Below are positions 2,115-32,285 of a stretch of DNA of 64,000 nucleotides, piece after piece. The stretch spans positions 2,170,001 through 2,234,000 of the forward strand of contig VICG01000012.1 in assembly GCA_008692225.1 (NCBI GenBank), in the 5' to 3' direction. A model generated the notes under the pieces. It made no database searches. It was not told where the DNA came from and saw nothing but the letters and a program-made list of their open reading frames with translations. The translations under genes and the position numbers were made by a program. The stretch is from Monilinia fructicola. Lineage: Eukaryota > Ascomycota > Leotiomycetes > Helotiales > Sclerotiniaceae. Each line of letters opens with the position of its first letter. Within the stretch, counting starts at the first letter, position 1.

Positions 2115-3074
2115 ATGGCAACACCAGATCATTGTCTTTATTGCTTCGAAGTTCTGACTGCTTATCATGAAGAAAAGACCTTCATTATCCTTGGAAGTTG
2201 TACAAAGATTATGGAAATTATATCCCAAAGGTCTCGAACTTCCAACTTCCCTAGAAGTGGAGGAAGAAGATCTTCAAACACCCGAGTCTCCCCTCAAATC
2301 CACCATCAACACAAATCCAAATGCAAACACAAATACAACACAAACACCAGTACATCTCGTCACCCCATCATCCAACGCATCACACGGTCCACCTCTGGAA
2401 CCAGCACACCATCCTCAAGTTCCTCATCCGATCGAACATCCACCTCGACCTCAACCAACGACACAACCCCTCCAGCTCCACCACATCCTTCACCCCCATC
2501 GGCATCTCCCCGTCCGCAAGAAACACCACCAACTCCCCACAACTCGCAACCTAGCCGAATGGTCCTCCCCCCTCTTCGTAACCTGGAACACCATATCCAG
2601 CAGCAACCACCCACATCAAAACTCCCAACCCTCCGCGGCTGCATCGGAACCTTTTCTTCCGAACCCATAGTCACCTCCCTCAAAGAATACGCCCTAACAT
2701 CCGCTCTCACACGACACGCGCTTCTCATCCATCACCCTCGCGGAACTCCCCACGCTCGAAGTAGCCGTCACTCTCCTCACGGACTTCGAAACGTGCAGCC
2801 ACCCCCTTGATTGGGAAATCGGAGTCCATGGAATCCGCATCACCTTCTACTATAAGAATAAACGGTATGGAGCATGTTACCTACCGGACGTAGCGGTAGA
2901 ACAGGAATGGAATCGCGAGGAGACAGTTGTGAGTGCCATGCGGAAGGCGGGTTGGAGCGGACGCAGAGAAAAGTGGAGGGAGGTGGGTCAGTTGACGGTG
3001 GTGAGGTACCAGGGAGGAAGGAAAGCGTGTCGTGGAAGGAATATAATGAGTGGAGACTTTGGTTCAGAGGGTGA
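2115..3074 (+). CDS. AMMECR1-domain protein, frame broken by four indels
   Basis: The conceptual protein follows the fungal AMMECR1 layout. It opens with MATPDHCLYCFEVL, then has a Ser/Thr/Pro-rich insert, then PLFVTW, LRGCIGTFSSEP, EYALTSAL, RFSSITLAELP, VAVTLLTDFE, DWEIGVHGIRI, YLPDVAVEQEW and MRKAGW, and ends with VRYQGG and EYNEWRLW. LRGCIGTF is the family signature. The molecular role is unclear; the human homologue is linked to AMME syndrome. No single frame covers the gene: the frame changes near 2170, 2630, 2705 and 3020, each by one base. No substitution-type stop codons are seen, so sequence error is more likely than decay. No intron is needed. The end is taken from the frame ending in the conserved C-terminus. 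Confidence 0.8.
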
Positions 3075-4415
3075 TCGCTGAGAAGGAGGGTAAGGAAGCT
3101 TCTGCTTTGCTCGGGATATGATGGCGAAATTGCAGGAAATATCACTTCCACACAACGCCTGTGAGAAGGATAAGTAGGGAGGGATGGAAACAGGAACAGG
3201 AACAGGAAACCAAGATCCAGCATCATCACGATACGATCATCCATCGCACAACTCCAAGCTCTAATGACAAACACACGATGCCAAAGACCCTCAACTACCG
3301 ACCAAGGTATTTATTTCAGCACGCTTTTCGACACCTGGATCCCTTCATGATTTTCTTGCACATACATAATTATAGATTCTAAACCATATCAAATCAAAGA
3401 ACTGCACTCGAGATATGCACACATGACTTGGTTTTTGTCATACGGACAAATCTACTTATCGTCTTGACGAAAATCAGATATAGAAAGAGAGCTTGCTAGG
3501 ATATCTCATTGGGTATCCCATGGCTATGATGAGAACTTTCATGCAAGAAGATGTTGTCTGTAGCCTATGCTCGCTCCGTTCATTCTCTTGTACGATCTCA
3601 TTTTCTTGTAAATTTCATTTCATTTCTAGTTGCATTGCATTGCATTGCATACGGTAGCTAACGATATAAAAATTGGTATAATAATGCTATGTGCGAGACT
3701 CCGTTACCCAAATAAAGTAAGCAACGCGCTGTAAATGGTATCATGTATCCATCCCTCCATCCGTTCTCTCATTCCCATATCCATATCCGTGTCTAGCCTG
3801 CAGTATGGTATTATTTCTTTCGTTCGCCCATTCCCATCCCTTGCCTTCCATTTCTTTCTTTTTTTCCTTGCTCAAAATGTCAAAGTGCAGTGGCCAATAT
3901 ACGCGCTTGCAAACCCGTGCTTTCATGTCTAATCCCATTCCAGGCTTCGACTTCCTTTCTCTTCCCGCTCGAAAGTTAGATGTAGATGGAGATCTGTCGC
4001 TTCGACTGGGAGGGTGACAGATAAATATATGGAGGACGTAAGCAAGTAAATATATCATGGCCCGTAAACAGGTACCTAGCAATGTCATGAAATGTATCGT
4101 GAATTGTCCCGTCAATCTCGTCGCTTCGCATCTCGGTGTCTCGACCATCACTCAGTCTTCTTACGTGGATGCTCTCCTCTCGTTCCATCCATCAAAGAGC
4201 AACCTGGAATCGGAAAATCTCATTTCCAACAAATCAACTTTCGTCTCATCTCCTTCCATTTCCTCCTCACCCCGCACTGCCCATCCCCGCCCTTTTCATT
4301 CTCCCCATTCAAACTCTCCGGCGGCAACGGTGTCAACGGTTTCGTCATCGCCCTCCTCGTCCCCAGTTTCTGCCTCTCCCCATCCAGATCCGCCCGACCC
4401 CAGCCCCCACACCAC
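3075..4415. other. Intergenic between convergent AMMECR1 and Ras genes
   Basis: No supported gene. Pyrimidine-rich and CT/CAT-rich sequence dominates, and the frames seen are Ser/Pro/Leu-rich without family resemblance. The two flanking genes converge here, so it should hold both 3' ends. Confidence 0.5.
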
Positions 4416-5088
4416 TCACCACCCACCCCCAAACTCGCTCTCCCCCGTCCACATCTCCGCCTTCCTCCTCCCCTCCACAACCCGTCTCACAATCAACGCA
4501 AACGTCTCCTCGATATTAACAATACTCCTCGCACTCGTCTCCATAAACCCGCAATTCCTCGCCCTCGCCCACTCCAACCCCTGCGACGCCGTCACCTCCC
4601 GCGACTGCTGAAGATCGCACTTGTTCCCCGCGACAATCTTGATCGGGGGCGCATACCCAGCCCGAGTCCGGCCGCACTCCCGCCTTTCTCCCCCGCGATC
4701 GCGCGCTTTCCACCTGCGCGCGCATCCATTCTTCGCTGCGCGGCTTCCCCCTCCATGCTCACTAGGTCGTCGAACCAGTCCAGGGCTTCCAGACTCTCGC
4801 GGCGCGTGATGTCGTAGACGAAGAGGAAGGCGTCGCTGCGCATGCTGCTGTTGGCGCTCTGCCACATGCCGCGGTATTCTTCTTGTCCCGCGGTGTCGGT
4901 TATGCTGAGGTGGTAAGGTTTTGGCCGTCGATGCGCCGCGTCAGCGTGTAGGAATCTTCGATGGTGGGATCGTAGTCGGATGTCCATTGGGATTTTACGA
5001 GGCGGAGGGTGAGGGCGGATTTGCCGACGCCGCCGTCGCCGAGGATCGTTATGGTTATGCGGTTGGGTGTGGGTGGGGGGCTGGTCAT
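4416..5088 (-). CDS. Ras-family small GTPase, frame broken by two indels
   Basis: All five GTPase boxes are visible in order: P-loop GDGGVGKS, effector region YDPTIEDSY with the switch I threonine, switch [18 protein letters not shown] and ETSAR. It should be a membrane-associated signalling GTPase of the fungal Ras group. The start is the ATG immediately before the [11 protein letters not shown] stretch. The frame shifts once around 4912-4916, where a run of four A would need a fifth to give the expected Gly-Gln-Lys-Pro-Tyr-His continuation, and again around 4670-4740 in an Ala/Gly/Arg-rich insert between [10 protein letters not shown] and [14 protein letters not shown]. The C-terminus reads EFGGGW and has no CAAX prenylation box, so either a further indel or an unseen last exon is possible. 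The gene is unusually GC-rich for the window. Confidence 0.8.
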
Positions 5089-5708
5089 TGTAGATGGTGT
5101 GTTGTGGGATGGGATGGAACGGTATGGTTTGCAGAAATGGGAGGATTTGGATGTGGGAGATTAATGGGGTGAGTGGGTTGGGATGGTCAAGATAGATATG
5201 GGTGAGGTGGATGTTTGAGATGGTGTTTGAAGTATGGTATGGTATGGTATGATTGAGATTGACTTTTCGCTCGGGGTCAATTGTCGCAGAAATTCGACTC
5301 TCGATATTCATTTGACGTCCGTTCGTTGAATGCTCGTTCGATGGCATATGTCTGTGTATACGTGTGGAAGTGGAAGTGGAAATGGAAGTGAAACTGTATG
5401 TATATGTGTATATGTATGTATCCATGGATGTGTAGAGTATACATACATGATATTCATCGATCCAACCTTCCCTGACCTACTCCGTCCTTTCCTCCCACCT
5501 TATACCCTTATGAATCCATCTCCTTATTGTGTGAAACCTCCCAAGTCCAATTGGATTGAATGGACCCAGATGGCAAGTAAGTATATCCTTCCTAAGGAAA
5601 AAATCAAATTACTTTATAATCAAAAAAAGAAACTCCGCACGGACATGTAATATAGAATAATGAGATGATGATATAATATATATATGTATGTATGTAAGAC
5701 TTATATAT

Positions 5709-5748
<40 letters not shown>

Positions 5749-6362
5749 CGGCGTCTATGTAATTCGAATTCTATCTATATTCATAGATAGATCCTTGAGG
5801 TATAGGATTAGTAGAAGTTGATTTAGATTTATATTCAGATTTCCAAGGTTATGTTTACTCTGTATATTATTGTATCAAATTCAAATTCAAATTCAAATCA
5901 TTCATCATTTTACATCTCTTGTAGATCTTCAGGACTTCAATATTGTGTGTAACATGAGCAAAAAGATGTGCCAGTTTAAGAATCCCTTGGTGCAACCATC
6001 CACCGGTGATCCCTCCCTTTGTTGACCCCTTTCAACTCCCGAGACAATATCAAACAGGCAAGATCCATTCTGTTGTACGATTACTTCTGTTAATGTTACT
6101 TATAGCTTCCTTATATTATTGTATATTGCATTGCCAATACATTCAAATAATCAATATAGTCAAATCAATAAACACATCATTCAATGAGTAGCGGTAATAA
6201 TATAATGTGATAATTCTAATATAATTGATGAATATAATAAAATAAAATGAATACGTAGACACTTCGCCTTGGTGTTAAAGCGAAGCGAGACCCCCTTGTG
6301 GATAACTAACAACTAGATCATGGATATCTCAACTATCTATTCATGGATCTTATAGGTATGTA
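5089..6362. other. Intergenic, upstream of Ras gene, AT-dinucleotide repeat
   Basis: Contains the Ras promoter side, with GGTATGGTAT-type repeats around 5230-5250, and an imperfect (AT)n / (TATG)n microsatellite about 5671-5744. No protein-coding frame is convincing. Confidence 0.6.
6345..6353 (+). repeat. Left copy of candidate 9-bp target-site duplication
   Basis: GGATCTTAT lies 9 bp outside the left inverted terminus and is repeated in direct orientation at 7262-7270, 9 bp outside the right terminus. The symmetric spacing suggests the true element ends may extend to these copies. Confidence 0.4.
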
Positions 6363-7252
6363 GGTCGGATGGACGTCCATTTGAGCTCATATGGACCTGT
6401 AGGAGCGTCTCTTAAAAAAAAAAGGTCAACTGCAAAACGTTACACATAGGTCCATCCGAACGTTTTGCCGAATGCATAATTTTATGAAAATTCATAAAAA
6501 TTCATAAAATTTATGCATAAATTATTTAGAATATTCTTAATCAGATTCTAAACGTTTTCTAAAACGTTTAGAAAACGTTTAGAATCTAATTAAGAATATA
6601 AACATTTTGAAAACGTTTTGAAAACGTTTTAAAAACGTTTAGAATCTAATTAAGAATATTTATAAAATTTTTTTAATAATAATAATATATAATAATATTT
6701 AGTATTTATTATTTATTTAATATTTAATATTTAAATATTGAAATATTAATAATAAATAATAAATAATTAAAAATAAATTTAAATATATATTAATTAATAT
6801 AGTTTTATTAAAAGATAAATTATATTATTATATAATATAATTTAATAGTATTAAATAGATAGATTATATATTTATATATATATATATTATTATTTAAATA
6901 TAGTTATAATATTTTAAGTATTATATATATATATATATTTAATCTAATCTAATTTAAAATAAAATTAATATAAATTTATATAAGAGAATTATATTATTTT
7001 TTTAATAATAAGCTTTAAATTAAATTCTAAACGTTTTCTAAACGTTTTTGAAAACATTTTAAAAACGTTTTGAAAACGTTTCGAAAACATTTAGAATTTA
7101 ATCTTAAAAATTTATAATTTATTAATAATCAATTTTTGCATAATTTTTTATAAATTTTTATGAAATTTTATGCAAATTTATGATTTTTGCCCCACTAGTC
7201 CACCCGACGTTTTTCCGAGTCCACGGGAGCTCAGATGGACGTCCATCCGACC
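6363..7252. mobile_element. Non-coding AT-rich element with 26-bp terminal inverted repeats
   Basis: The left terminus (6363-6388) and right terminus (7227-7252) are inverted copies of each other with one difference in 26 bases. Each contains the 12-bp palindrome ATGGACGTCCAT (6369-6380 and 7235-7246). Inside each end sits an array of AACGTT-centred units (about 6430-6645 and 7025-7085), with A+T-only core sequence of about 350 bp between them. The 9-mer GGATCTTAT occurs at 6345-6353 and again at 7262-7270, flanking the element and resembling a target-site duplication. No open frame of useful length exists. The structure suggests a non-autonomous DNA transposon (MITE-like). A 9-bp duplication with inverted termini would fit a Mutator-type element, but that assignment is inference. 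Confidence 0.65.
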
Positions 7253-7261
7253 TGTCGACTC

Positions 7262-7270
7262 GGATCTTAT
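7262..7270 (+). repeat. Right copy of candidate 9-bp target-site duplication
   Basis: Identical to 6345-6353. With the interior it would define an element of 908 bp (6354-7261). Confidence 0.4.
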
Positions 7271-10200: not shown

Positions 10201-11476
10201 AGGTATCCATAAATGAAGATACCTTATCGCAAAGAGACGAAAACAATGAAAGAGGGGAGTGAAATATAATATGTAAAATCAAAGGCGAACCAAAGGCAAG
10301 ATACAAAACAATTAAACGATGAGCCATTTTGAAAAGTAATGATAGGAACTCGGCGAAGCCTCAAGCCCTACGTACCATTCTCAGAGCATGCAAATTTCAA
10401 CTTATCGACGTGCAATTGACTCACATCATAGATCCCAATGAAACACATCCTCTACATCACATATCCTACCCCCATTCCCCCCTCATTTTCTCCCTCTCTC
10501 CCTCACCACCCCTTCACCTTCCACTCCATGAAACCAACACCTCTAATAACCAACCACATCCAACACCCCACATCTTTCTCTCTCCCCTCCACTCCCATCC
10601 CTCTATACAAATCCAAAGAATGACAGTCTCAAAAGAATACAAGTGCAAAAGATAGATTCAGCATTGTTTGTCGCTTTCTCCGCTGCTGGGGAGTAAGTTA
10701 AATCCCAACGTCGTGTATTTATTATTTGGTTCGAAGTTTCGTTTAGGGTATATTTTCTGGGTAGGCCTGTCTACTATACCCCGTTGATCTCATGAGTTAT
10801 ATGCGATGACGGTACTCTTAAAATCATGATGGGTAACCCCAGATTTTGCTCGATATTGCAATACCTCCAAATGAAAGAGAATATAGAGACCAGTCATTCC
10901 ACTGACCCCTGGCATCATAACCATGAGTCATATCACAATCATCACCAAGAGATCAAATTTAAAATGCAATTGCACTTGTTATTCTTGTTTAAAGTCTATC
11001 TCAGCACCACCGCAAGGTCCTTAATTCTCGCATTCGTACCTCAGTAAGAAGATCACTCAATCGAGAATATCAACCACAAGCCATATTGAAATGAGAAGAA
11101 AACCATCCTGCCTGTATCGGACCACCAGATCGAGTAAAGAGTTAGATTTCTCAATAATTTTTATCCATCACCAAGTCCATAACGACTTCCAGATACCCTT
11201 ATGCACAAATAAAAGGAGGAAATTCTTGAGCTCAATCCCTGAAACGAATCCGAGATGAGGTCAGAATCCTAAGAAGTGAAAGTACAAGTCCTATCCCAAA
11301 TCCCTCATAAACCAATTGCGATTGCAACTAGCTGGCAGAGAAAGATTGAGAAATCGTGGGATCAGGGATCCGAGAATCAAAAAAATATGTAATAAAACAA
11401 GGTAGAGAAATAAAAAAATCTTGAAATCAAAGACAAGGGTCAAAGATCATGATGTTTGCAGAAGAGAAATATGCGC
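7271..11476. other. Gene-free intergenic region
   Basis: No frame shows a recognisable domain or convincing exon structure. Several frames of 60-130 codons (for example around 7699-7986, 8801-9130 and 9451-9846) are Ser/Pro/His/Leu-rich translations of pyrimidine-rich DNA. A (GT)n/(GC)n dinucleotide repeat lies at about 9914-9951. The right end contains the 3' flank of the Argonaute gene. Confidence 0.55.
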
Positions 11477-14400
11477 CTAGATGTACCACATACCCGTGCG
11501 AATCTTGATAAGAACATCCATGCTAACATGATCGTTAGGAGAGAGTGTTCCCAAAGGAAGAAGTGGCACATCTTGAACCATGTTGCTTGAGCTGGTTTGA
11601 CTGGTTGCTACAGCACTCTGGCCTGTGGCGACTTTCTTAACAGCTGCCTCATAGACTTTCTCGAGGAACTTTTCGCCACCACGTGGTCCTTCACTATAAC
11701 CGGAAGCTTCATGTGCACGAGCACGATTAGAAGCAAGATGTGCATAGTAGACAGCAGGATCTGAAATATGTCAATAAAGCAAGGAATGGTAAGAGGTAGT
11801 GCGAAACTTACACAAGGAAACAGGAGTTGTAGAACGCATGTACTGATAGCAATGCTGGTAGACCATGCGTTGGAAATCATTGACTGGGACCTTTTGCTTC
11901 ATCCATGATGACTTGGTAATGAACTGGTCGAGCCGTACCCTGGATAGCAGAGTGAGAGCTAAGGTAGAAATCATACTCAAATGGGTGAGTGATATCACGT
12001 TCAACCAAAGTACCTGGAAGAGCGTTTCCATTCTTGTCACCGGCCGCCATATCATTGTCCTTTGGGAAGAATCTAAGGTGATGGCGCTTGGTACAAACAG
12101 TGACAGTCCAAAGGATCTAAGAGTGATTAGTAAGAGTATCCTGAGAGTCGAAGAATGAAAAAACTTACAGAAGCACCACTGGGACCAAAAGCTTCGTTGA
12201 GAGCATCTTTCATGTCCTTAACTTCCTGGTTGATGACATGTTCAAATTGACCTTCAGAAACACCATCTCTGAAATAGTAGATGTGTCGAGGACCCGAACC
12301 GTTGCCGACCTTCGCAACCCACTGCCTAAACAATGGAATCATCATGGTCTTGATGTTATCCTTGGATATCATCTCAACACGGTGGCCATTGGTTTGAACT
12401 GCAGCAGCATATCGGCAAGCAGTTGAGTCCATCGACATAGTCAAACAAGCCATTGACGATTGTGGAGATCCTGGTGTAGCGTGTGAAACATCAGCACCGA
12501 TGATCATTGTTGGTCGTGTGAAGAATGGCCTAAGCGGCTTAGTATCAGCAACCTTGCAAGTGGTTCCACCTAGCTTGGCGTTGACCTTCATGCACACGTT
12601 GGAGCAATATTGGGGTTGTGCCTTCATGACATGAGCAACATTCATCACTATATCTTTGTTAGTTGAGTGTCTGACAAAAGATAGTTAACACTTACTTTGG
12701 GAGACCATTCCGAAGCGGCATTCATTGTTCTTCTTGAAACGCTCGTATTGGAAGGAATCACGGCCAGGTAAGATGAAAAACATGATCTGTGGTGTCTTGT
12801 TACTTTGCATTCCAGCCTGTTGTCGAGCGGCATGAACACCAGCAGCAATTTCTGCCACATGGCCAGAAACTTTAACGATAGGAGGATTCTTGTTCGTAAC
12901 TTTACCACCATGACCCATGTAAGTTTGGATGAACACCTGAAGGAAATTCTTAACAGCAGGGACTTGAATACAATCGGCGACAATGCAAACGGCCCAAGAG
13001 TTCAAATGGTTCAGGATTGGCGTATAAGAACTTCTTGCCACGCAAATCCCAACGACCGGAGGTTCTAGGATCAATAGTAGCCTTGTCAAATTGAACAACT
13101 GGATTCTGGAGAAGGCGAGCTTGAGTCTACAATGTGTAAGTATTATATATCAAAGAGAAAAGTGTGGAAGGATAACTCACCATGGTCATAGTTTCTTCAA
13201 TCTTGCAGCCATAGTGTGCGAGGTAAGGATCCTTCGACCAGTTCAACATGCCAAGGCCATGTTGGATGGAGTCCAGGCGAACCTTTGGCCGAGTAACTGC
13301 AAACTTGATCATGGAAGCTGTCTGGTTAGGATCAAGCTTAAACTGATACTTTTGATTAGGAAGCAAAGTACAAACTTCCATAGGGAAGAAGCCTGCTCTC
13401 TCGGTCTCAATCAATGGGGCCCACCAATATTGAAGGTTGATGTTGTACTTGTACTTGAAGTAGTCATACACAGAGGTCTCCTTGCCAGTCTCCTTTGGTG
13501 TGAAGAAGTGATTCTTGGCATTGAGGCCTGTCTTGCAATACTTCTCGTCATTAGAGAAAGTAAAGCGCTTGATGGTATAAAACCTTCTTATCTACGTTGA
13601 AAGTTAGGCACGATATCGTGTGATTGATAAGATATAACATACCTTCCTGCTTGCCATGATGCTTAAGATGGAACTTCAATTTCTTCATCTTTTCCAGAGT
13701 CTTGAACTCAGCAGACTTCTCATATTTACCAGCGGCGTTTCTGAATGGCATAAGGTGAGTGCGGAAGACATCATAGTTGAGAGCTCTATTTCGAGCACTG
13801 CATACATTGCGAGCGGCCTGCATAACATCTTGAGAAGTCCAAAATGTGCCATTGGCAACATCAACGTTAATTGCAAGACCACGGATGGCATTGCCATCAG
13901 GACGTGGTTGCAAAGACGAATTGAAGAATAAACACCCTTCATAGCCTCGATAGTGTGGTCCAAAGGAGAGCGTTGGGGTCCCCGAGCAAAGAAACTGCGC
14001 TTTTGAACAGTGTATTTCTCACTGGGCCATTGACGAAGCATGTGGTCAAGGAAATCTGATATAAGAGTTAGTCAATTTAACAAAAAATATATTTGACAAA
14101 CTTACTGATAGCACAGAGAACACTGTTGTCAAAATCAATCTGCTTATTGAGATATGCATGTAAAAGCAGCCATTCTGATGACGGTGGTCTGCTTGATGAC
14201 GCAGTAGACAACGCGACCCGGATTGGGATCACGACCATTTTCGAGATCCAAATCAACGGGAATTCGGACCTCGCCACGAGCAAGAGGGTTTGCGCACCTA
14301 AAGGAAATGAGTATCATATGAAAGTGAAGGTAAATGGAAGTTGCTTACCAAGCGATCTTGTTGCCATCCCAAAGCCACATCTTACCATGCTTTGCTAGCT

Positions 14401-15755
14401 CTGCCTTGACAGTTCGAGACTCCCAGACCTTCTTGATGAGGCCCATCGTCGAAGTTTTATCGCCGATGCAGATCTGAACTTTTTGTTAGTGCTTGAAGGT
14501 GAGGTGAGGGGTATATTCCATACTGACATCATACTGGTAAACATCGTTTCTAGGAGCGTCAAGAACCTTGTACTGGTTCACGCGAATGCTAACAGTCTTG
14601 CCCTGGGTGTTGTATCCTGGACGAGCAGGAAGAATGGTGGAAGCCGGAATGTCATACTGCATTCTATCGTCAGCGTCACGTATACCATAGTTGCGATATT
14701 CCATATTGACGGTTGATTCGGGTCACGACAAAGGCGAAAGAAATGGGGTATGTGGGCGAGGAGGATAAAGATTTTAAGTGATAAGAAAAGGTCAAAAGTG
14801 CTGGGTAAAGAATCAGCCTGCAAGTGAAGGCTTTGAATATTTGGTAATTTTGACTGTTATTGCAGTAAATAGTGATATGTGTAAACGTCAAAGATGATTT
14901 AAGGAATAGTAAGAGGTAGAGGAGTTGAGTGTTTGGTTGTAAGAAAGATGGGGATAGAGTGGAGAGGGAGAGCTCTTTTGTAGAGGAATATATTGACCTA
15001 GTAGAGAAACTAGTGCGAGATAGAGTTGAGGAGAAGGGGAGGAGAATGCAAAGCACGCAGGTGATTTTAAGGGAGAGGGGAGGAGTGAATGATGGACTAC
15101 TACTGAAGATTGCCCAGAGCGGGGTATGAGTGCGTAGTGGGTCATCGCTTTCAAGCTTTCTCTCGCTTCATCGGCAGTCATTCAAACAAACAAGCAACTA
15201 GCTTGCTGTTGTTGAGGGGTATCTCAAGAAATACTTAAGTAAGGAGAGATAGGGTGAGATAGGGTAGGCAAGGTAAGGTAAGACTGCTTGAAGTATAGCA
15301 ACTTTGTTAACCATAGCGGGGTTAAGAGCAACTCAGTCCAGACCTGGTAGTTATGCACAACATTATCACCGAGGCCAGTATAACATCATAATGCAGCCTG
15401 GCATACGTCCTTGAAGCACTAATAACTACCTCACGGATAGCGAAAATGCCATGGCAAACATGAAATCACATATCAACAAACAGAATATATCACTCACGTT
15501 ATCGCGATAGCATGGAAGCTCAACGCGAGTGTTGAACTTTCTTCCCTCATCTCTCTTGGTATCTTTGGCAGGATCAAATCCAACACCTGGACCAAATGGA
15601 TTGGGCATGCGTGGTTCACCGGGTCCATCAAAGCCACCTGAGGGTGGGCGACCTGATGAAGAGGCTGGTGGTGCTGAAGGACGTGGTGGTTGATCAGAGT
15701 TTCCCGGCGATGAAGGTGGGCCGTGATTGGCACGACGCTGTTGACCAAGACCCAT
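11477..15755 (-). CDS. Argonaute (QDE-2-like), 10 exons, five indels
   Basis: Small-RNA-guided effector of RNA silencing. Exons by splice site: 15498-15755, 14528-14656, 14349-14473, 14106-14297, 13643-14055, 13181-13591, 12696-13126, 12169-12647, 11812-12116, 11477-11760; about 1,000 residues. The first exon is Gly/Pro-rich. Landmarks in order: N-domain VYQYD, linker AINFLDHMLRQWP, LAINVDVANGTFW before PAZ, MID GMVSQ and MKVNAKLGG, PIWI GADVSHATPGS, HRVEMI, FRDGVSEGQF and ARPVHY. The catalytic DEDH set (Asp of GADVSH, Glu of HRVEMI, Asp of FRDG, His of ARPVHY) is intact, so slicer activity is plausible. Single-base frame breaks lie near 14162-14165, 13914, 13579-13582, about 13030 and 11892-11895; several are AAAA/TTTT runs one base too long. 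Introns are 48-54 nt except the first (841 nt). Confidence 0.92.
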
Positions 15756-17855: not shown

Positions 17856-20800
17856 TCAATGATAATATCCACCATTGGCATTTCCATTTCCAGGATATTG
17901 AGTTAGCGGATATGGTCCAGGCTGTTGCTGCTGCCCTTGCCATCCTCTATTTTCGAAACTAGCATTTCGTGAGTGAGAAGGCGCCTGGCTATACCCGCTT
18001 GCCCATTGATTATCCTTGGGGGTTACAGGAGACCTGGTGTATTCATGACCCTGAATTACGCTTGAAACTCGATCATCAATAGGAAGATAACCAGGCTGCG
18101 GTAGGCGACGCGAATCCCCAGAATATCCATTGTTTCCAGTATTTTGTGCACCGTAACCATAAGATTCATGTTTATTAGGAGCTTGGTAACTGGGTATCAT
18201 ACCGTCATAGCGTTGTGGTTGTTGTGATTGTTGAGGCTGTTCGCGTGCATTCTTCCATTGCACGAAATCAGGTACCTCAGTTCGGGCAAGAAGTTGAACC
18301 ATTTCATTTGGAATGAATTTCACACCTTTCAGCTGTGGATCGCGAAGGTATATATCTGAACGAGGGATGATGCTAAGGAGAAACGTGATGTCTCGCGGGA
18401 TTACGTAAGGTGCTGCATTTGATTGCCATGTGGGTGTGCCTTGTGTTTGCTGTATTCCCTTTTGTTGCGCCAATCGGCGTCCCGCAGCTCCTTTCAATGG
18501 AGACTGACCACGCGCTAGCTTTCGTGGAGGGTTGAGGTCGTTCTCAAAGTCTTCCGCTGGGAAGGGTCGCTTTGGTGAATTTGTATTCTGATTCGACACA
18601 AATTGTGGTGGTTGCTGTGGTCGTGGGCTGGGTTCTTGCACGTATTGAGGTCGCGGACTGTCTGGAATTGAGGGGGCTTGTTCAATTGATTGCATAACCA
18701 ACTTGGGTTTCATCTGTGAACCAGGCGAGACAATGGGTCGTACAGCAGTAGGGTCAAATCCATCTACACTGTAACGTGATGAAAACCTCAGAAGTCTTGG
18801 GTCATCTGGGAAGAGTTCCGCCATGCGCTTCTCTAGCTTTTTAATCTGATCCAAGGTTCCAAATTGAGATTCGTAGCTGTGGAAGTAAACATAGAGGGGC
18901 TTTGTCTTGTGCACCGGTTTCGGGTTTCTGTGCCAGGCGGCTGACTGCTGTTTCGAATGCAACTCGAGCATCTGCTTCATGATTAGCGCTGTGAATAACA
19001 AAGGATCTGAGGGAAATCATACTGGTGATGTCCGAAATGGAAATCAAGTGCTTCAAGTACTCCAGAAGATAGGTTTCATCGGTTGGGAAAAGTTTAGCCC
19101 CTCTTTCAAAAATTTTGGTGCCAGATTTATCCTTGTACACCATGTGTTCAATCAGGGCACTGGCAACATAAACTTCACTTGTGATCATGCCACGTTGACG
19201 AGCCTCGGCAAAAAATGAATCTTGATCCGGTCTTGGCTTCGATTGAACCGTTTCCTTGAATGCGCCGCATGGCTCTCATTAGTGCAATCCAGGAGAAGGA
19301 GACGGTCCGCTGCAAAAGTTTCCTCTGCATTTCATAACCCTGGGTGATGGCGCTCAGTTGATTAGCTTTAGCCATTTCTCTAGCAGCCTTTTCGGCATCA
19401 CTGTCATCATCATCCTCTGCCTTTCGCACGATTGCGCTGATAGAGGCATCGATGGCGGAATTCTCCTCCAATTTCGCCTTTTCTTTCGTCTCCCTGACTT
19501 TTAACTCCGCGATAAGTTCATAGAGAGAGTCCAGAAGTTTAGCGTATGGAGCCCGAACAATTGCCCCTTTCTCAAGATCGCTCTTTCCAGCTTCTTCAGT
19601 GGAGAGTGTAGATTCAAGTCGGTCAGCTTTTTTTGAAAGCTAGTAGACAGCTCTCAGGGTTTGCGACGATTCCGTCAGCAAGGAAATTATCTCCTTCCTT
19701 CTCTAAATTGTTGTTGAAGCACCACTCAGCAGCATCGACCCAGATCTCCGGCCAGAAGCGTAATGCCATGACAGCCTGCTTATAGACGTATAAAATTCGC
19801 TGTTTGTAAGCATCCAACTCATCAGCTTTCAGAACCAAAGGGTCTTCCTGTTCCCAAGATATCCACTTCTTCCATAAGTCCAGTTGATGTAAATATTCCT
19901 GGTCTCCCTCGAACCCAAAAGCAGGTGGAAGTCTAGGTAAGGTTGTACGCTGAAGCCCGCGTGTCAAGTTGTCTAGTGCCGTGTTGGCACTTCTTGCAGT
20001 CATGTAATTTGGAGATCTTTCTTGAAGAAATTTGCGGCCCTAGCATGACCTGTCAGCCATAGACCAAAGATATCGGAGGGCCGAACTCACCGTCATCTTA
20101 TTCAAGCCCATCTCAAATTGGTCATACTGTTTCCATAATTCATTCACGTTTGACATAGGAACACATATGGCACGTTGATAGACTTTTCGCAATTGATCCA
20201 TCTTTTGTTGATCCTGCCAACTACTGCCACCAATGGAACCAGGTGCACTACGGATGAACTGAATGTAATCTTGCCAAATCTTACCAGAATCCCTATCAAT
20301 TCCAATGTTTGCCAAGACAAAATCGTATGCTTGGGACACGGTTGCACGGGCAGAACACTAGGGTCGACATTGAGATCGTTCATTCGACGTATGTAGTTTA
20401 AGTAGACCGACCAAAGCTGAATATTGGGAACTGTCAACAATGATTTGCCAAAGATTTGTTCTGCTGCACTAAAGTTTTCATATTCGAGTTCCATCTCAGT
20501 ATAGGCTACCCAAATCTCTGCCTGGATCATCATTAGAAGAAGGAGCATGGTGAAAGATTGCATATGACTTACAGCGTGTGGGAAAACTTTCAAAAATCTT
20601 TCATATACGGCTCTCGCATCATCCAACTTGTTGCGCTTGCGATGTTCACCGATCAAAGAGAGCCAAGCTTCCATATCACCTCGCGGGTCCTCCTTGACCC
20701 GATCTTCAAGCATACCAATCTTGTCATGCGGAAGACGAGCTCGGGGAACAGATATATTTTGTTCTGTACCAACAGGGATGGGCACTTGCACCGGATTTTG

Positions 20801-21355
20801 TTCTATAGGTGTTCCCACGTTACTGGATTGATAGAATTGGGAATAGAGGAGAGTGCTTCAGCCTTGGGGTCAACTTGATTCTCCGTCTTGATAGGTACTT
20901 CTGGTTGAACGATAGAGTTTTGCAATGGGGAAGGAGATCGTTTGGGGTTATCAGAAACTGGAAGTTGCAAATGACCAGGATTAAGTGGTGTAGATTCGTC
21001 ATTTTCCTCATCAGAATCATCTGCTATAAATCCCCCCACGGTTTTTTGGTTTGCGCACAGAAGTTTGAGAGCTAGGTCTTGAGCGATCTTGTTCAGTTAC
21101 CACGGCTGGAAGGGATGTAACAGAGGAAGGGTCATAATCGCCGCCAGCGGCTAACGCAGCTGGGCCTGAAGGAGATAAAGCACGAGAAACTTGAGCATCT
21201 TTAACGGAATCTTGCTTGACATGTTCGTTGTTATCTTCTGTATTGGAAGGTAAATCACCCTCTGCGATTCCATTATCTCCATCTTCCCAAGCCGTCGCAT
21301 CTTGTCCCGCCTGTAACTGATGCAAAAGAGCTATATCTGCATCTTCCTCCGCCAT
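17856..21355 (-). CDS. Rna14-type mRNA 3'-end processing factor (HAT repeats), six indels
   Basis: Orthologue of yeast Rna14 / human CstF-77, a subunit of the nuclear cleavage and polyadenylation machinery built on HAT repeats. The start is MAEEDADIALLHQLQAG, followed by an acidic segment and HAT-type motifs: EDPRGDMEAWLSLI, AEQIFGKSLL, LWSVYLNYIRR, GKIWQDYIQFI, QRAICVPM, ALRFWPEIWVDAAEW, FSWIALMRAMRRIQG, KIFERGAKLFP and YFHSYESQFG. A Gln/Pro-rich tail ends the protein. Introns, all 51 nt: 20522-20572, 20040-20090 and 18972-19022. Frame breaks lie near 21032-21037 (six C), 20815, 20353, 19628-19634 (seven T), 19208-19213 (six A) and 18912. Rna14 is essential in yeast, so six breaks argue for sequence error rather than a dead gene. 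Confidence 0.9.
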
Positions 21356-22443
21356 TTTGAAGACTGCTATGATATATTATGTAGATGCGCAAGTGGCTTG
21401 TCGTCGATATCCCTGTAGGATTAATGATGGTACACAGTGGCTAGAGGATTGTTAGCAAGGTGTGAATGGATGGATGCATCGGAAGAGATGAAGGCAGGTA
21501 AGGCAAGGTAAGGTAAGGGTAAGTATAATAATTGTGAGTGTGAGTGTGAGTGTGAGTGTGAGTGTGAGTGTCAGTGTGAGTGTGAGGCTTTATTACCTCT
21601 TTGCACAATGAAACAAACTTGCGCAGATTCAGATGAAATGAAGTGCAATGAAGTGAAATGAAATGATGGTTGCGCAACAAAGAAAGTTAAATAACGCAGT
21701 TGGTTTTAGATGAGATCATTCAATTGCAGGTTATTTTTGGTTGATGGTCTATTATTATGGTTGATGAAGGAATCCAGCAAAAAACAAAAACAATGAGATT
21801 TTCTTCCTTGTGGTCTGTCCACCAGGTCTGTTGCGTTGGTTCTTTAATAATAATAAGGTTGGCAAAAGCTGATGATGGATGGATAGAGCTGGGTGGGAGG
21901 AGCTTAGGTAAGGGTAAGGGTAAGAGAGGGTAACAACGGTGGCCTCAGGCTCATCAGGCATGAAAGATGGAGATCGATAAGCTAACTCTAACATGGTTAG
22001 CGTGCATCTCTTTGCTGGTAGAGTGACATTATTCGCGGTCTTGATATTGTCTACGCGACTTTCCATCTTCCACGCGTCTGTCGTTTATATTGACAGGATA
22101 CTACTGACATACTGCCATAATCCCACTTCTCACCGCCTTTCATCTAATGCTGCCCCATCAACCAAATTATCGACGTGATTCTCCTCGGCCGTGCTTTCTT
22201 CCTCCTCTTCAATACAAATACAGATACAAATACAAATACAACTACAACTACAACTGCATTTACACCCACAATCACAGATACACTTACATATACACTTGCA
22301 ACTAGACACAGCTTCAATAACCTTTAGCACACAAGAGTCTGCTACCGCTTGGTTAACAAAAGAGAGATTACATATTTTGAATCACAACTTTTTGCAAACC
22401 TTTTAAAATCTTAACCAAATCTTCACAACCGATCACTTTCAAG
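21356..22443. promoter_or_regulatory. Divergent Rna14/Asf1 intergenic region
   Basis: About 1.09 kb between two start codons on opposite strands, so it must contain both promoters. A hexanucleotide (GTGAGT)n repeat occupies about 21534-21586 on the Rna14 side. The Asf1 leader (about 22210-22300) is a run of CAAATA/CAACTA-type repeats, typical of unstructured fungal 5' UTRs. Confidence 0.55.
21534..21586 (+). repeat. (GTGAGT)n hexanucleotide repeat
   Basis: Eight to nine near-perfect GTGAGT units with one GTCAGT variant, upstream of the Rna14 start. Confidence 0.85.
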
Positions 22444-23468
22444 ATGTCGGTCGTCTCACTTCTTGGTGTTAATGTATTGAACAATCCAGCAAAATTTGGT
22501 GATTCTTATGAGTTTGAGATCACTTTCGAGTGTCTTGAGGCCTTGCAAAAGGGTGATTCTCTCTCCTTTCTGCTTTTGGCTTATCTATTCCTGCGTTCTT
22601 TCAGTCACTAATCTATCTTGGGGCTACAGATCTTGAATGGAAATTGACCTATGTTGGTTCCGCCACGTCGTGAGTCTCCACCTTCCTCAGTTTCTACCTT
22701 CCTAGATCTAGAATCTAACAGACAAAGCGATGAACATGATCAAGAACTTGATTCTCTCCTCGTCGGTCCCATTCCTGTCGGCGTAAACAAATTCCTCTTT
22801 CAGGCAGATGCCCCAGACACAAAGAGAATTCCAGATGCAGAGATCCTCGGTGTTACGGTCATCCTCCTTACCTGTGCCTACGATGGTAGAGAATTCGTCA
22901 GAGTTGGTTACTATGTCAACAATGAATATGATTCTGAGGAATTGAATGCCGACCCTCCAGCCAAGCCACTTCTTGACAGAGTCAAGAGAAATGTTCTTGC
23001 TGAGAAGCCCCGTGTCACTAGATTTGCCATCAAGTGGTAAGTCATTATGTATCTGTGAGGCAAAACATTATACTAACGTTGGACTGCAGGGACTCCGATG
23101 CATCTGCTCCAGCTGAATTTCCACCTGAGCAACCTGAGGCCGACTTGGTAGCCGATGGTGAAGAATACGGTGCTGAAGAAGCTGGCGAGGAAGAGGACGA
23201 AGATGTAGAGGAAGGCGGTGCAGTTGACCCAGACGCGATGGAGCAAGATTCAGAGATGGCTGGTGTAGAGATTGAGGGAGTTGCGGCTGACGAAACGGGA
23301 GATGAGAGTGAGGATCTTGAGGCCGAGAGCAGTGGCGAATCTGACGAGGAAGTTGAGGAAGATGAGGGCGCTGGAGACGATGACATGGAAATGGATGGAG
23401 TTGAGAAGACTGGTTCCGAGAAGGTTGGCGGCCTTGCACATCAAGCTGATGCGGTTATGGCCCACTGA
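22444..23468 (+). CDS. ASF1: Histone chaperone Asf1
   Basis: Binds histone H3-H4 and delivers it for nucleosome assembly and disassembly in the nucleus. Exons: 22444-22552, 22630-22669, 22722-23036, 23090-23468, all in frame, about 280 residues. The immunoglobulin-like core is highly conserved: it begins [18 protein letters not shown], continues [57 protein letters not shown] and [12 protein letters not shown], and ends [14 protein letters not shown]. It is followed by a long Glu/Asp-rich acidic tail, as in fungal Asf1. The first donor is GTGATT, weaker than the others. Unlike its neighbours this gene shows no frame break. It is divergent from the Rna14 gene. Confidence 0.95.
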
Positions 23469-25778
23469 TTCAATACCCTTGCATACTTTTGATTTTAGAA
23501 TTCATTAAGCGCGTTACGATAGGTTATGACTGGGAGGAAAGCAAATATTAAGGTAGTTATATGATAATTACAGGAGGTCGATAATGATATTTTAAATAGG
23601 AATATCAAATAGGCTACGAATGCTTATAGTATGGCATAACAATTATGATATTTTTCAACAGGACTTATGAATTTTGCTCTTCACTCATACACTATGCGCG
23701 ATCATCCCTTTGTCCTATCCCGTTTCTGTCTATTAAATGCAATTATTCATCTCTACCCAAGTATATAAAGGATAACTGAACTGAAATTAGTATCTGAGAA
23801 TCTCCACCGAACATAAATCTTCCTCCACCTAAACAGATCATCAATTTTTCTCACCAATTAAAATAACAAACTATAGGTATCTCGACTTAAAACATATATT
23901 CAGGATAAAAAAACCCAGACATCGCGAATAATAGTTCAGAGCCTCAGATAATTTCCTCGTGTATACACCGATCAACAGCTATGTCATAGTACATACTAGG
24001 TACCTAGGTAGGTACTTGGTGATGGGAAATGGTGTATTCATGTAAGATCTTATTATAGTTATCCAACGCACGGGTTTGTAGACAAGCTATCAATTATCTT
24101 TACCGACGCGAGGTTAAGGAGGAAGGACAGAGAAGCGAGAAATGGTTGTAATGTTGTGATTCGTTTCTTTGGGAGGTATACCAATGGAGATAATTCAACG
24201 GCAGAGGGAATTCTCCGCTGTCTTCTGTCTGGTATCTAGTGTATCTATCCACTGTATCCCATCCTAAATCCCATACGAACTCTAAACAAACCCCAACCTA
24301 CCTCACCACTCACCCCTCACACCCTATCTTTTTCTCATCCCATACTCACACCCCTTTCCCTCCCCCCTCTTTCAAGACTCCCAGCTATACTCTTCCTTCC
24401 TCCTTCCTTGGCCCTTTCATCATCAAAGGTATTTACATGTTTTGTTGCTGGTGGTGCGAAGTCGATGGTATTGGAAATCCAATCTCTTTGTTCGATTTAG
24501 ATTTCGGTTTCGATTTATTGGGATCGTTTTGCGCGGAGGCTTGATGGAGGGGGAGGGGGAGGGGGAGGGGGAGAGGGGGAAATGCTAGGTTCATGATGTG
24601 GATCCGGTGAGTTGAGGTAAAATGAGATGCTAGATATTGTGTGTTTTGGTATAAAATCACGATACGGGCATGCGCGGGTCGGGGTATACATGGTCTTGAA
24701 TCTGTCCAGGCACCATCATATACCATGAGCTTCAAAATCACGAGGCCGGACAGACCATATTTGATGGCAGTACCTATGGATCGATAGAGCGTCACACTAT
24801 TAATGGAGCTGCTATTTACCTATCTTGGTATGGGAACGAAAGACCGATCGTGTCTTCCTGATACACAACCCGCTCATGTGGTATTCTGATCCTCCAACCC
24901 CTCGACAAAACCCAAAAGTGTCCATTGAAGTTCCTGTTCCTCGATACCCCTTTCCGTCCTGCGCGCCCTACTCCATCTCAACGCAGTGAAAAATCTCTAC
25001 TGAAGAGTCTCCAAAAATTCACAAACCCACTGATCAGCCCAAACCCAGCCAAACCCTCCCTCCCACCACGAACCAAGAAACCGCCCCCGAACCCCCAATA
25101 TTGCAAGCAAAACAAACCCCACCATGAAACCCCGATCTCCGAGCGATCCACCTTCTCACCTAACTCCAATATCAACCGCCTCTCTTCCCATCTCTGGCCT
25201 GCAGATCTGTGTGGCTTTGCACTTGCTAATTCATCCAGAGTATAGAAAGGTCAACTATTGAATCTCGCTGGATTCGCATGATTCAATACAAATATCCACT
25301 TCTTTATACCCAAACCACATTTTAGAATATGTGGAATTCACTTGGGATATTTCCTGGGTTTGTTGTTGCCTTCAGGTTGAAAATGAAGTTGATTGTCGCC
25401 CCATGATGTTGGTATTGAAGTACATGAGCGGTCCTGGCCTAGCCTTGGATTTGTCTGGCCTAGAGGGGTGTCTGTTCACTAATAGTATTTCGACTTTAGT
25501 TGTGGTGTTATTCTATCACTTGTTTCGTCGGGATGAATGCTGCGTATTAAGATGACTGGGGACAACACAATTTTCCAGATCATGCATCGAAAATGTCACA
25601 TAATTTTGAAAATATGAAGCCAAAACCACTAGACCCAACGCCCATCCAATTGCACTCATAACTTGGGAGTTTGATACCTTAAGCATTCTTCAAGCAAATT
25701 TCCCATACCAGGTATCCATCAAATCCCAAAAACGCCCATCAACCATTCATTTGTCCTTAAATTTCCTTCCCTTTATTT
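23469..25778. other. Intergenic between convergent Asf1 and Sro7/tomosyn genes
   Basis: No supported gene. A G-rich run of GGGGGA units lies at about 24547-24580. Frames around 24239-24544, 24433-24795 and 24925-25245 are Pro/Ser/Lys-rich without recognisable domains. The tail should contain the 3' UTR of the minus-strand gene. Confidence 0.5.
24547..24580 (+). repeat. (GGGGGA)n G-rich minisatellite
   Basis: At least five G-runs of four or more separated by single A, which could form a G-quadruplex on the plus strand. Confidence 0.75.
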
Positions 25779-28700
25779 CTAAAACCACTTTCCAGTAATT
25801 CCACTCAACAACATGCCTCTCTTCTGTTTATTAACATACTTACTAACATCATCCGCCCATCCCGCACTATTCTCCTGGACCTTATCCATATTATCCCCCA
25901 TGATGTTAAGCTTTTCTGTCCTCTCATTCAACTGCCTTGTCATATAATCGCCCCAACCTTCCTGACTTCCACTAGGTCCCGCTCCACCACCAGTACTACG
26001 AGCGAGACGTTCTTCCTCGGCCGAGGCAGCGAGCATTCGTTTACTAGGGGGACGATCGGACCACCGATGAGAAGATCAAGATCGGTTGGTGAAACATATT
26101 GAGTTCCAGATATCCATTGGAGATTTGATATGGTGGGACGTGAAGGGATCAAAGCTTCCGGGTTGAATAGCTTGTCTTGGCTCTTACCCAGTGGTAGCCC
26201 CGTTCCCCAGACGTTGACCATTGCGACCTCACTTGGGCCGGTCCAACCTAAGATATCGCCAGAGGGTGTGACGACACTATTTGAGGACCGGGTTTTGTCC
26301 AGCATGTCGAGCTTTGACATCCCAATTTCTTTGAGTGCTGGGAGTGAGTAAGCGCGAGCTGTTCCATCACCGAAAACTCCGACGAGGGCAAAAACCATGA
26401 AGTTCGAATTCGGTGACGGCAGCGGAGTCACAAAAAGACATCGTCAAAGGTTTTATGAGCACCTTTGGCGCTCGAAGGTTTGAAAATGCGGGCTTCAGTT
26501 TGAGTTACTATATGATTGTTAGTGACATTGTCATGCTATAAGTAAGGAAATTTTCTGAATCAAAGAAGAAACGTGGGCATCGCGACTACTAACCTCCCTC
26601 CATATATCAGGAGGTCAGTAGTTCCAATGCTTACGGTTAACTCACCAACTACCAGAGCACCATGAGTCTGCTGTCCATTGCGAAGTGCAGCTACAGTAGG
26701 TCCAGTTTGCCGATGCAGGCTTACCCGTTTCAGCCACAATAGGTGTGATTGAGATTACTTTGTCAGCACAGGCAGTTATACCAACAAATTGAGCTGTATA
26801 TCCGCCATTTTGCTGTGGTAATATCTTGAATGTGGCGACTTTGCCATTGCTTGTTCCTACGAAACAAGCAATGCTAGAATACTTATCATCATCTAGGGTC
26901 ATAACACCAAATTCAATACACACAGGCCATTCTGGTTTAGCAGAAGTTTGGCTACTTCCCTTCCTCATGAAACTACTTCTCTTATCTTGTTTGATAAAGT
27001 CAGTCATTAAGGCGGTGAAAATGACGGTTGGCCCTCGGAGATCAATGATTGAGAAGGCTCCGCCTTCAGATCCAACTGCGACGAATCCAACATCTGACAT
27101 TCGAATCGCGCTTATGGGTCCTTGTGCCATGTCATATAGAATGAATGGTTGTAGACCCTCTTTTAAAGATGGTTCTGCACGAACGGAGATATCCGTAATG
27201 CCTCCTTGTAGAGTTTCGTTAGCTGGCTGTTCGCTACCATAAGCTCTGTTGCCACCCCATCTATAAATCACCGCTTCACCAGCTGTCGTGCCAACACAAA
27301 GCTCTCCGGTGCTTGAGGCCATGCTGATTGCAGAGATATTAACATCTTCAAAACGTGCAACGGCTCTAGCGATATCAACTTGTAGTGCGCTAGAGTTCTC
27401 AAGTTCGTCTCCATGTCCGACATCCCAAATTCTGACTGTACCATCACCGTGAGCGGTTTGAATGATATTACGTGCTTCGTATCTTCGTAAATGTTTGACT
27501 CCCTCGCACCCCCCTTCAGAAGCAGGGGACCAATAGAACGAGTTTCGGTCATACCAAGCCATCGTCCTCTATCCACAGCAGATACTGTCATGAAATTGAC
27601 GAATGGGTGAACAAATGAGAGGGAAGGATGAAGTTGATTGGTGGGCGAGATAGGATGGCCAGTAGGGAAGGTTAATGTAACCAGCTCACCGGATGTAAGA
27701 AGTGCGATGATGGCAATGGGGTCTTGGGCACCAGCAAAATGAGGTGAAGCACGGGGGATAAGACAAAAATCCGCGATATCTGCACCAGTGGGAGTCCGGA
27801 ATGAAATGCTGACGTTTTGCGTTGAAGTGATCAGTCAAGGCTGGCCAAGTTTGAAGTTGCATAAACTGGGGTTACTCCTAACTCCATAAATGTCATGCCT
27901 TTCGTAGGCATCGTTGTAGGTACACCACCAGCCACAAGGAGACCAGTATCATCAGGGTTTTCCTTGCAACACCAAGCTATTTGGCGAAATCCTCCTTGAG
28001 AGAGAAAGTACCAGTGGGACTGCTAGGGCTTTGAGGTTGAGAGCCGGAGACATTTACATGTGTATCTTGTAAAGTTCGTGCCATCACAATCCGTCCATCC
28101 TTGGGATCCCAGAATACAATACTTGCATCATCATGCGCGGTAGCAATGAATGTTCCTGTTGGATGCCAAAGAGCTTGAGTAAGACGTGGTTGCCTCGGAG
28201 CATTCTGTCCCATAGGATCTCCATTACCCCCGGGAGCCCCGGCTGGAACTTCATATTGAAAGTATTTGATAGGTTTGTTTTGCTTTGAATGAGTATATCA
28301 CGGCCCCCTCCGTATATCCTATCAACAACTGTCCAATATCTCTCGGATGCAATTGTAGAGACACACAACTCAATAACCTTGATCGTGGCCTCTTTTCGCG
28401 CCAGAAATTTGGAAGTCGTAAAGGCGCAAGCTTCTCTCTATCTAAGTCGTAGCATATGATATCTCCATTTTGTAATCCGATCAAACACCAATCTAGCATA
28501 GGATCAGTTACAATTGTCGTCACTACACCTGGTGGAGAGTAAGCCGCCAGCTTCTTTGCCGTCGCCAAATCCCATATTATCACTTCATTTTTCGAATCAA
28601 CGCTGATAAGTCTGTCGGCGCAAAATTGTAGAGTTTTGACGGATGCTCGGCGGGGTAAAATCAGCTTAGCTTGAACTCTCTTTTGGCCAAAGATGTAGAT

Positions 28701-31759: not shown

Positions 31760-32285
31760 GGCATTCTCTATTGGAATCAGATTTAGTCTTCTGTTTTGTG
31801 ATCAAGACTTCTAGAATAAATATCAAGGCATATACATAATGCTCGGCGTGGCGTTTTATTTTCTCATATTTGTATTGCCCACTAGTTAGTATAAATCCAT
31901 ATCGCATTGCAAATTCTCACATAGCTGTGTCCGTTCAATCTCTTATCCTGTGTTGTTTTGCGTCTGGATGTTGATCATGTCATGCTTACATACCATGCCC
32001 AGGTGCCATCTGATATAGAGGAAGCTCATTATCAGCTCCAATCTGTTATAGCCAATTGATGTAACTCCTTCGAGGAAAAGTTCCCTGTCACAACTCCGCG
32101 AAAGTATACTAAAATCAATAGCCAATATGGTGCAATAAAAAGTGATAGGTAAAAACAAAGCGGTAGTCATGCTATTGCCAAATCCCAAGCAAGTCTTTCC
32201 ACCCTAGACACATCCTGCCCTCACTTCTCACAAGTATAGATACAAACAGGATCGACATCAATAATAATATCAAAAGATCATCAAA
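31760..32285. other. Intergenic, 3' flank and tRNA upstream region
   Basis: Nothing beyond the 3' UTR of the PDAP1-like gene and the 5' flank of the tRNA is visible. Confidence 0.5.

What the first reader, a model, noticed from the sequence alone, without database searches (positions are those of the whole stretch)
2115..28400. Clustered single-base indels confined to the left 28 kb
Five conserved genes (AMMECR1, Ras, Argonaute, Rna14, Sro7/tomosyn) together show about 26 one-base frame breaks in roughly 11 kb of coding sequence, often one base too many or too few in A/T/G runs. Splice sites, domain order and catalytic residues remain intact and stop codons arise only from frame change. Nine genes right of 29.5 kb, with similar coding length, show none, and Asf1 inside the left block is also clean. 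The sharp boundary suggests a poorly polished or low-coverage contig segment rather than five neighbouring pseudogenes.
Basis: partly seen in the sequence, partly recalled or inferred. Interest (0 to 1): 0.75.

Follow-up and report, generated by a model that had tools for sequence, protein, structure and literature searches.

The report
Uncorrected indel patch in fungal assembly
A stretch of a published brown-rot fungus genome carries many one-letter insertion and deletion mistakes left by the sequencing and assembly process, so essential genes look broken on paper although the living fungus almost certainly has them intact.

Summary
The frame breaks are in the sequence but almost certainly not in the organism. 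The window is Scaffold_012 of the Monilinia fructicola Mfrc123 assembly. Frame-tolerant alignment finds 5 one-base breaks in Argonaute, 6 in Rna14 and 9 in Sro7/tomosyn: 20 in 9.0 kb. AMMECR1 and a Ras GTPase add at least one each. Argonaute equals another strain's protein at 1001 of 1001 aligned residues, despite 5 breaks. Asf1 is unbroken and a coding HMM calls none right of 29.5 kb except at its loosest setting. Rna14, Sro7 and this Argonaute match only themselves in the assembly, so they are not decayed spare copies. Breaks favour homopolymer runs far beyond random indels. The patch runs left out of the window (IF2-like gene), and similar breaks occur on other contigs, including 5 of 10 TCP1-chaperonin loci. 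This fits incompletely corrected 24x PacBio consensus and may explain the assembly's low BUSCO score (88%). No reads were seen. Verdict: assembly artefact; low biological interest, useful as a warning.

The parts
2115..3012 (+). AMMECR1-domain gene, broken: at least one intron-free frame change inside the domain
   Evidence: Pfam AMMECR1 profile 43-70 and 70-164 lie in two frames with no room for an intron
4296..5347 (-). Ras-family GTPase gene, broken: at least one intron-free frame change inside the domain; a second frame change is compatible with an intron
   Evidence: Pfam Ras profile pieces 3-49, 45-102 and 107-160 in three frames
11481..15755 (-). Argonaute gene, 5 one-base breaks (4 extra base, 1 missing); otherwise identical to the CMPC6 strain protein
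   Evidence: 1001 of 1001 aligned residues identical to P0123 (MFRU_044g00410, 1007 aa); no in-frame stop in matched codons; only match in the assembly
17856..21355 (-). Rna14 (mRNA 3'-end processing) gene, 6 one-base breaks (4 extra, 2 missing); the only copy in the assembly
   Evidence: 983 of 1000 aligned residues identical to M. laxa P0002; single copy
22444..23468 (+). Asf1 histone chaperone gene, unbroken
   Evidence: both Pfam stretches in one frame; HMM model with 3 introns and no break
25785..28971 (-). Sro7/tomosyn (Lgl-like) gene, 9 one-base breaks (6 extra, 3 missing); its first ~200 codons are unbroken, which puts the right edge of the patch near 28.3 kb
   Evidence: 962 of 985 aligned residues identical to M. 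fructigena P0244; only match in the assembly
29512..63271 (.). Clean right side: 11 HMM gene models (matching PP28, CorA-like, AMSH-like JAB, hemerythrin, 2OG dioxygenase and arginase among others; some short-exon models are doubtful) without a called frame break at penalties -8 and -5.5
   Evidence: 0 breaks in 12.9 kb of predicted coding sequence; Pfam

Best explanation
The left ~28 kb is part of a stretch of the Mfrc123 hybrid assembly in which residual long-read errors, one base too many or too few and often at homopolymer runs, were not removed from the consensus. Shown: the breaks, their single-base nature, their homopolymer bias, uninterrupted orthologous proteins in relatives, the absence of second copies of three of the genes, the patchiness, and recurrence on other contigs. 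Inferred: that the cause lies in the DBG2OLC/Sparc consensus of 24x PacBio RSII reads where short-read contigs or long-read depth failed to correct the backbone. Also inferred: that the genes are intact in the living strain.
For: Identity of the assembly: C12 is 2,285,153 bp, and C1, C4, C8, C10 and C13 also equal the paper's scaffold table; 44.03 Mb in 20 contigs against 44.05 Mb in 20 scaffolds. 20 breaks in 3001 reference codons of three genes. Argonaute: 5 breaks but 0 amino-acid differences to strain CMPC6; true decay would bring substitutions too. Rna14, essential in yeast (recalled), is single copy and split. The submitters' own Rna14 protein (EYC84_009251, 858 aa; M. laxa 1004 aa) lacks stretches at or near the frame changes. 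8 of 20 breaks lie within 5 nt of a run of 4 or more, against a mean of 1.94 for random indels, reached in 0 of 2000 trials. 14 extra to 6 missing bases. Elsewhere: 5 of 10 TCP1-chaperonin loci, 6 of 94 kinase loci and 1 of 36 DEAD loci have an intron-free frame change. The paper reports BUSCO 88% complete, 10% fragmented; strain CMPC6 has 98.7%, and its authors say the Mfrc123 score is low for unknown reasons.
Against: No reads were seen, so local depth and consensus support are untested. The 14:6 insertion excess is not significant on its own (two-sided P 0.12), and 12 of 20 breaks are not within 5 nt of a run of 4 or more. CMPC6 is itself a PacBio assembly whose authors fixed more than 100 indels by hand, so its intact Argonaute is not fully independent; five full-length orthologues from other genera (P0124-P0128, 1012-1042 aa) stand beside it. 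If continuous, the patch is about 42 kb, longer than an average subread (9.8 kb), so a single bad read is not enough. Other families show few or no breaks: DEAD 1 of 36 loci, sugar transporters 0 of 9 (9 of 245 candidates scored), and AMP-binding 14 single matches with no junction to test (14 of 81 scored). At looser settings the HMM also calls breaks in the far-left 100 kb.
Confidence: 0.96

Rival explanations
1. A block of neighbouring genes has really decayed in strain Mfrc123 (pseudogenes), by relaxed selection or subtelomeric decay.
For: The window lies in the last ~115 kb of the scaffold (C12:2170001-2234000 of 2285153), and fungal chromosome ends can decay (recalled). The breaks are clustered.
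Against: Rna14 has no other copy. No in-frame stop in the matched codons of the three aligned genes. Argonaute has 5 indels and 0 amino-acid changes against another strain. Intact Asf1 lies between broken genes. TCP1-chaperonin genes on other contigs are broken too.
Confidence: 0.02
2. A mutator (mismatch-repair deficient) history in strain Mfrc123 produced real homopolymer indels.
For: The homopolymer bias.
Against: A mutator would spread indels evenly. Here the 34 kb right of the patch and 100 kb farther left are free at the strict HMM setting (0 in 12.9 kb and 0 in 39.8 kb of predicted coding; at -8 the far-left stretch has 6 calls in 40.3 kb). 12 of 20 breaks are not within 5 nt of a run of 4 or more, and single-copy genes that are essential in yeast (recalled) would be dead.
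Confidence: 0.005
3. The genes are expressed through programmed frameshifting or transcript editing, so genomic frame breaks are tolerated.
For: The three genes can be followed from end to end across the breaks.
Against: Proteins of relatives at 91-100% identity read straight through. Both extra and missing bases occur. Genes a few kb to the right show none. I did not look for a shared slippery motif.
Confidence: 0.005
4. Artefact, but of another kind: a second nucleus or haplotype, contaminant, or chimeric piece was assembled here.
For: Sharp right edge near 28.3 kb.
Against: Argonaute is identical to the M. fructicola CMPC6 protein over 1001 aligned residues. Rna14 and Sro7 are near neighbours in M. 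fructigena too, by their locus numbers DID88_000624 and DID88_000626. No marked base-composition step at the edge. The three tested genes have no second copy.
Confidence: 0.01

Closest known systems
Residual indel errors of long-read assemblies that fragment genes
   Same: Single-base insertions and deletions, homopolymer bias, truncated or intron-patched gene models, lowered BUSCO completeness. Tools for this exist (Kastor, PMC12007338; Polypolish, PMC8812927: only the starts of the abstracts seen, in the listing).
   Different: Here the errors are patchy, with dense stretches beside clean ones in one scaffold, although 250x Illumina data were also made.
Indels in the CMPC6 assembly of the same species (PMC8070815, passages seen)
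   Same: Its authors report that PacBio assembly introduced more than 100 indels.
   Different: They were checked and fixed by hand there; in Mfrc123 breaks remain in the sequence, and at least one deposited protein (Rna14) is shortened by them.

Membership tests
Uncorrected long-read consensus error | Frame breaks are single-base insertions or deletions | tested here: met
   20 of 20 breaks in three genes are +1 or -1, though the aligner also allowed +2 and -2
Uncorrected long-read consensus error | Excess at homopolymer runs | tested here: met
   run of 4 or more within 5 nt: 8 of 20, random mean 1.94, reached in 0 of 2000
Uncorrected long-read consensus error | Conserved protein sequence intact on both sides; orthologues unbroken | tested here: met
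   1001 of 1001, 983 of 1000 and 962 of 985 aligned residues identical
Uncorrected long-read consensus error | Hits apparently essential genes that are unlikely to be pseudogenes | tested here: met
   Rna14 single copy; 5 of 10 TCP1-chaperonin loci broken; essentiality is recalled from yeast, not tested
Uncorrected long-read consensus error | Reads disagree with the consensus at the breaks | not testable with these tools
   no reads available; accessions SRR8599895 and SRR8608008 named in the paper
Pseudogene block | Substitutions and in-frame stops accompany the indels | tested here: not met
   0 stops in matched codons of three genes; 0 of 1001 amino-acid differences in Argonaute
Pseudogene block | Splice sites lost | tested here: inconclusive
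   all 15 introns in the three alignments are GT-AG, but the aligner admits only GT/GC-AG introns
Pseudogene block | Function covered by an intact copy elsewhere, or dispensable | tested here: not met
   no second copy of Rna14, Sro7 or this Argonaute at DNA level; other Piwi-domain loci exist on C4, C13 and C15, so Argonaute may have paralogues; AMMECR1 and Ras not tested

The most novel reading that the evidence does not exclude
Among the many errors, one or a few breaks, for instance in Argonaute, are real, so that strain Mfrc123 has lost an RNA-interference gene that other strains keep, hidden in a patch of sequencing error.
Probability: 0.03. Interest if true: 0.45.

Novelty: not a real feature. 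Interest (0 to 1): 0.2.

Why it matters
The Mfrc123 assembly is the most contiguous of the four M. fructicola genomes tabulated in PMC8070815 and is used for comparisons across Monilinia (passages). Patches like this one cut conserved genes into pieces and can shorten deposited proteins (Rna14: 858 aa against 1004 in M. laxa), so apparent losses or fragments in it should not be read as biology without a check. It also offers a testable reason for the low BUSCO score that the CMPC6 authors called unexplained. Searching the held library for 'Mfrc123' listed 10 papers. I read parts or passages of four of them and saw no report of clustered indels there; one (PMC8228255) says its strain comparison was built so that frameshifts from sequencing or assembly errors do not count as missing genes. 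The other six were seen in the listing only.

Tried and rejected
1. DNA search of 19.9 kb seemed to show no second copy, but it did not even list the window itself, so I discarded it as evidence; three shorter searches replaced it, each listing the query itself at 100% and nothing else.

2. Kinase junctions: the script flagged 10 of 45 as breaks. Four of these have 47-52 nt in excess of the profile, the size of this genome's introns, so I count the 6 with an excess of 11 nt or less either way; this sorting was by eye on the script's output.

3. NOP9-like gene left of the window: its frame change leaves about 55 nt in excess, so it is compatible with an intron; not counted. The Mto1-like gene right of the window has HMM-called breaks, but its two domains are too far apart to exclude introns; not counted.

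4. The HMM is weak: it recovers 5 to 7 of the 11 breaks known in Argonaute and Rna14. At looser penalties it also calls some breaks in the far-left 100 kb (6 in 40.3 kb at -8, 18 in 41.8 kb at -4.5), so its counts rank stretches and are no census.

They score only the best candidates (kinases 129 of 174, DEAD 37 of 66, TCP1 22 of 22, AMP-binding 14 of 81, sugar transporters 9 of 245), which favours intact genes.

6. Programmed frameshifting, mutator history and pseudogene decay were considered and rejected as stated under the rivals.
Full report
What the window is. The search tool places the window at C12:2170001-2234000 of a 44,028,109-base genome in 20 contigs. C12 is 2,285,153 bases long, the length of Scaffold_012 of the Monilinia fructicola Mfrc123 assembly, and C1, C4, C8, C10 and C13 have exactly the lengths of Scaffold_001, 004, 008, 010 and 013. 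C15 differs by about 1.4 kb (1,967,500 against 1,968,927). The deposited protein EYC84_009251 [Monilinia fructicola], on a contig of 2,285,153 bp, matches the window's Rna14 gene. The assembly paper (PMC6795239, parts 1 and 2 of 3 read) describes 250x Illumina and 24x PacBio RSII reads, assembled by SparseAssembler and DBG2OLC with a Sparc consensus. BUSCO was 88% complete and single copy, 10% fragmented and 2% missing.

Are the breaks there? I wrote an aligner that places a reference protein on DNA allowing GT/GC-AG introns and one- or two-base frame changes. References came from protein searches with single-frame read-throughs, X at each stop. Argonaute against the CMPC6 strain protein MFRU_044g00410: residues 1-1007 reached, 1001 aligned, 1001 identical, 5 breaks (4 extra, 1 missing base). 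Rna14 against M. laxa: 1000 aligned, 983 identical, 6 breaks (4 and 2); again 6 against Botrytis and M. vaccinii-corymbosi. Sro7 against M. fructigena: 985 aligned, 962 identical, 9 breaks (6 and 3); again 9 against two more distant references. Together that is 20 breaks in 9.0 kb, 2.2 per kb. The counts hold over penalties from -14 to -40, except that Argonaute gives 4 at -30 and -40. In AMMECR1 the Pfam profile passes from position 70 in one frame to 70 in the next with no room for an intron. In Ras the same happens near profile position 47; a further frame change there could be an intron. No matched codon is a stop. All 15 introns in the three alignments are GT-AG, but the aligner admits only GT/GC-AG introns, so this is weak evidence.

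Is the right side clean? A self-trained coding HMM with frame-change states was run over C12:2,020,001-2,284,000, the window plus 150 kb left and 50 kb right. At the strict penalty (-11) it breaks in 39.8 kb of predicted coding sequence from -150 to -50 kb, 6 in 19.2 kb from -50 kb to the window start, 7 in 11.2 kb from 0 to 29.5 kb, 0 in 12.9 kb from 29.5 to 64 kb and 3 in 12.5 kb beyond the window. It recovers only 5 of the 11 known Argonaute and Rna14 breaks at this setting and 7 at looser ones. At looser settings the far-left stretch also gets calls (6 in 40.3 kb at -8), while the right side of the window stays at 0 down to -5.5 and gets 3 at -4.5. With an assumed sensitivity of one half and the left-side rate, 14 calls would be expected on the right side. 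The right side holds 11 gene models, among them ones matching an AMSH-like JAB protein, arginase, CorA and a 2OG dioxygenase. I had no close reference protein for these, so their cleanness rests on the HMM and on open frames. Asf1's lack of breaks is unremarkable: 1.9 were expected.

Where are the edges? The right edge lies inside Sro7: its first ~200 codons, down to about 28.3 kb, are unbroken. The left edge is not in the window. An IF2-like gene (IF2_N, GTP_EFTU and IF-2 domains; presumably mitochondrial) at about C12:2,156.6 kb, 13 kb left of the window, has its EF-G domain 2 split over two frames with one base in excess (profile 12-51 and 50-82; the two pieces score 21.2 and 23.9 bits, each below the 27-bit cut-off). 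The strict HMM run also has 2 calls in C12:2,150-2,160 kb. If continuous, the patch is about 42 kb long; it may have gaps.

Is it genome-wide? Where two neighbouring matches of one gene meet, the excess of DNA over profile is mostly either near 0 with a frame change (a break) or about 47 nt and more (an intron or insert). Breaks by this rule: 6 junctions in 5 of 10 TCP1-chaperonin loci (C1, C3, C12, C13, C16; the C16 case is a short match nested in a longer one of another frame), 6 of 94 kinase loci, 1 of 36 DEAD-helicase loci and 0 of 9 sugar-transporter loci; the 14 AMP-binding matches gave no junction to test (sugar transporters and AMP-binding read by eye). These are lower bounds, since only the best candidates were scored except for TCP1 (22 of 22). 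Eight CCT subunits and Hsp60 are expected once each, and CCT subunits are essential in yeast (both recalled); ten loci, one of them a partial domain on C7 in a 1,499-aa frame, leave no room for spare copies.

Error or decay? Five observations point to error. (1) Rna14, Sro7 and this Argonaute find only themselves at DNA level, and Rna14 is the only gene with strong Suf-profile matches. (2) Argonaute has five indels and no amino-acid difference from another strain. (3) Breaks gather at homopolymers: a run of 4 or more lies within 5 nt of 8 of 20 breaks, against a mean of 1.94 for random indels in the same genes, reached in 0 of 2000 trials; a run of 5 or more at 5 of 20 against 0.40. (4) The deposited gene model drops residues at or near the frame changes: EYC84_009251 has 858 residues and lacks stretches present in the 1004-residue M. 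laxa protein. (5) Breaks are patchy on a scale of tens of kb, which suits local consensus failure better than selection or mutation. Extra bases prevail 14 to 6, as in raw PacBio reads of that generation (recalled), but this excess alone is not significant (P 0.12).

What remains open. No reads were seen. Whether the patch had low long-read depth, no short-read contigs, or a failed consensus step cannot be told. CMPC6, the same-species yardstick, was itself corrected by hand for more than 100 indels, but Rna14 and Sro7 proteins of several other species read straight through as well. The paper on CMPC6 (PMC8070815, passages) notes that Mfrc123's BUSCO score is low 'for unknown reasons'; patches of this kind are a plain candidate, not a tested cause. 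I found no statement of clustered indels in the passages read of PMC8070815, PMC8959702 and PMC8228255 or in parts 1 and 2 of PMC6795239; the other six of ten papers naming the strain were seen only in a listing.

Noticed in passing
window 6354-7262: AT-rich palindromic element of about 0.9 kb with inverted ends (I7) and many copies: at least 19 other near-full-length copies at 72-86% identity on 11 contigs, looking like a MITE or foldback element (list truncated).
   Followed up: partly
C4:1700772, C13:2061523, C15:118466 (loci L001, L003, L005, L006): Three further Piwi-domain loci in the genome; the one on C4 sits in an open frame of 959 aa, the one on C15 has stops inside its matches and an intron-sized gap.
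   Followed up: partly
C12:2236 kb and 2248-2264 kb (L040-L043): A second stretch of HMM-called frame breaks right of the window, across an Mto1-like gene with Cnn_1N and Mto2-binding domains; introns not excluded.
   Followed up: partly
window 32286-32374: tRNA-Trp (CCA) gene, 89 nt, in the clean part.
   Followed up: no
window about 22210-22310: Low-complexity tract matched at 77-88% identity by short repeats elsewhere in the genome, among them matches spaced 48 bp apart on C8.
   Followed up: no
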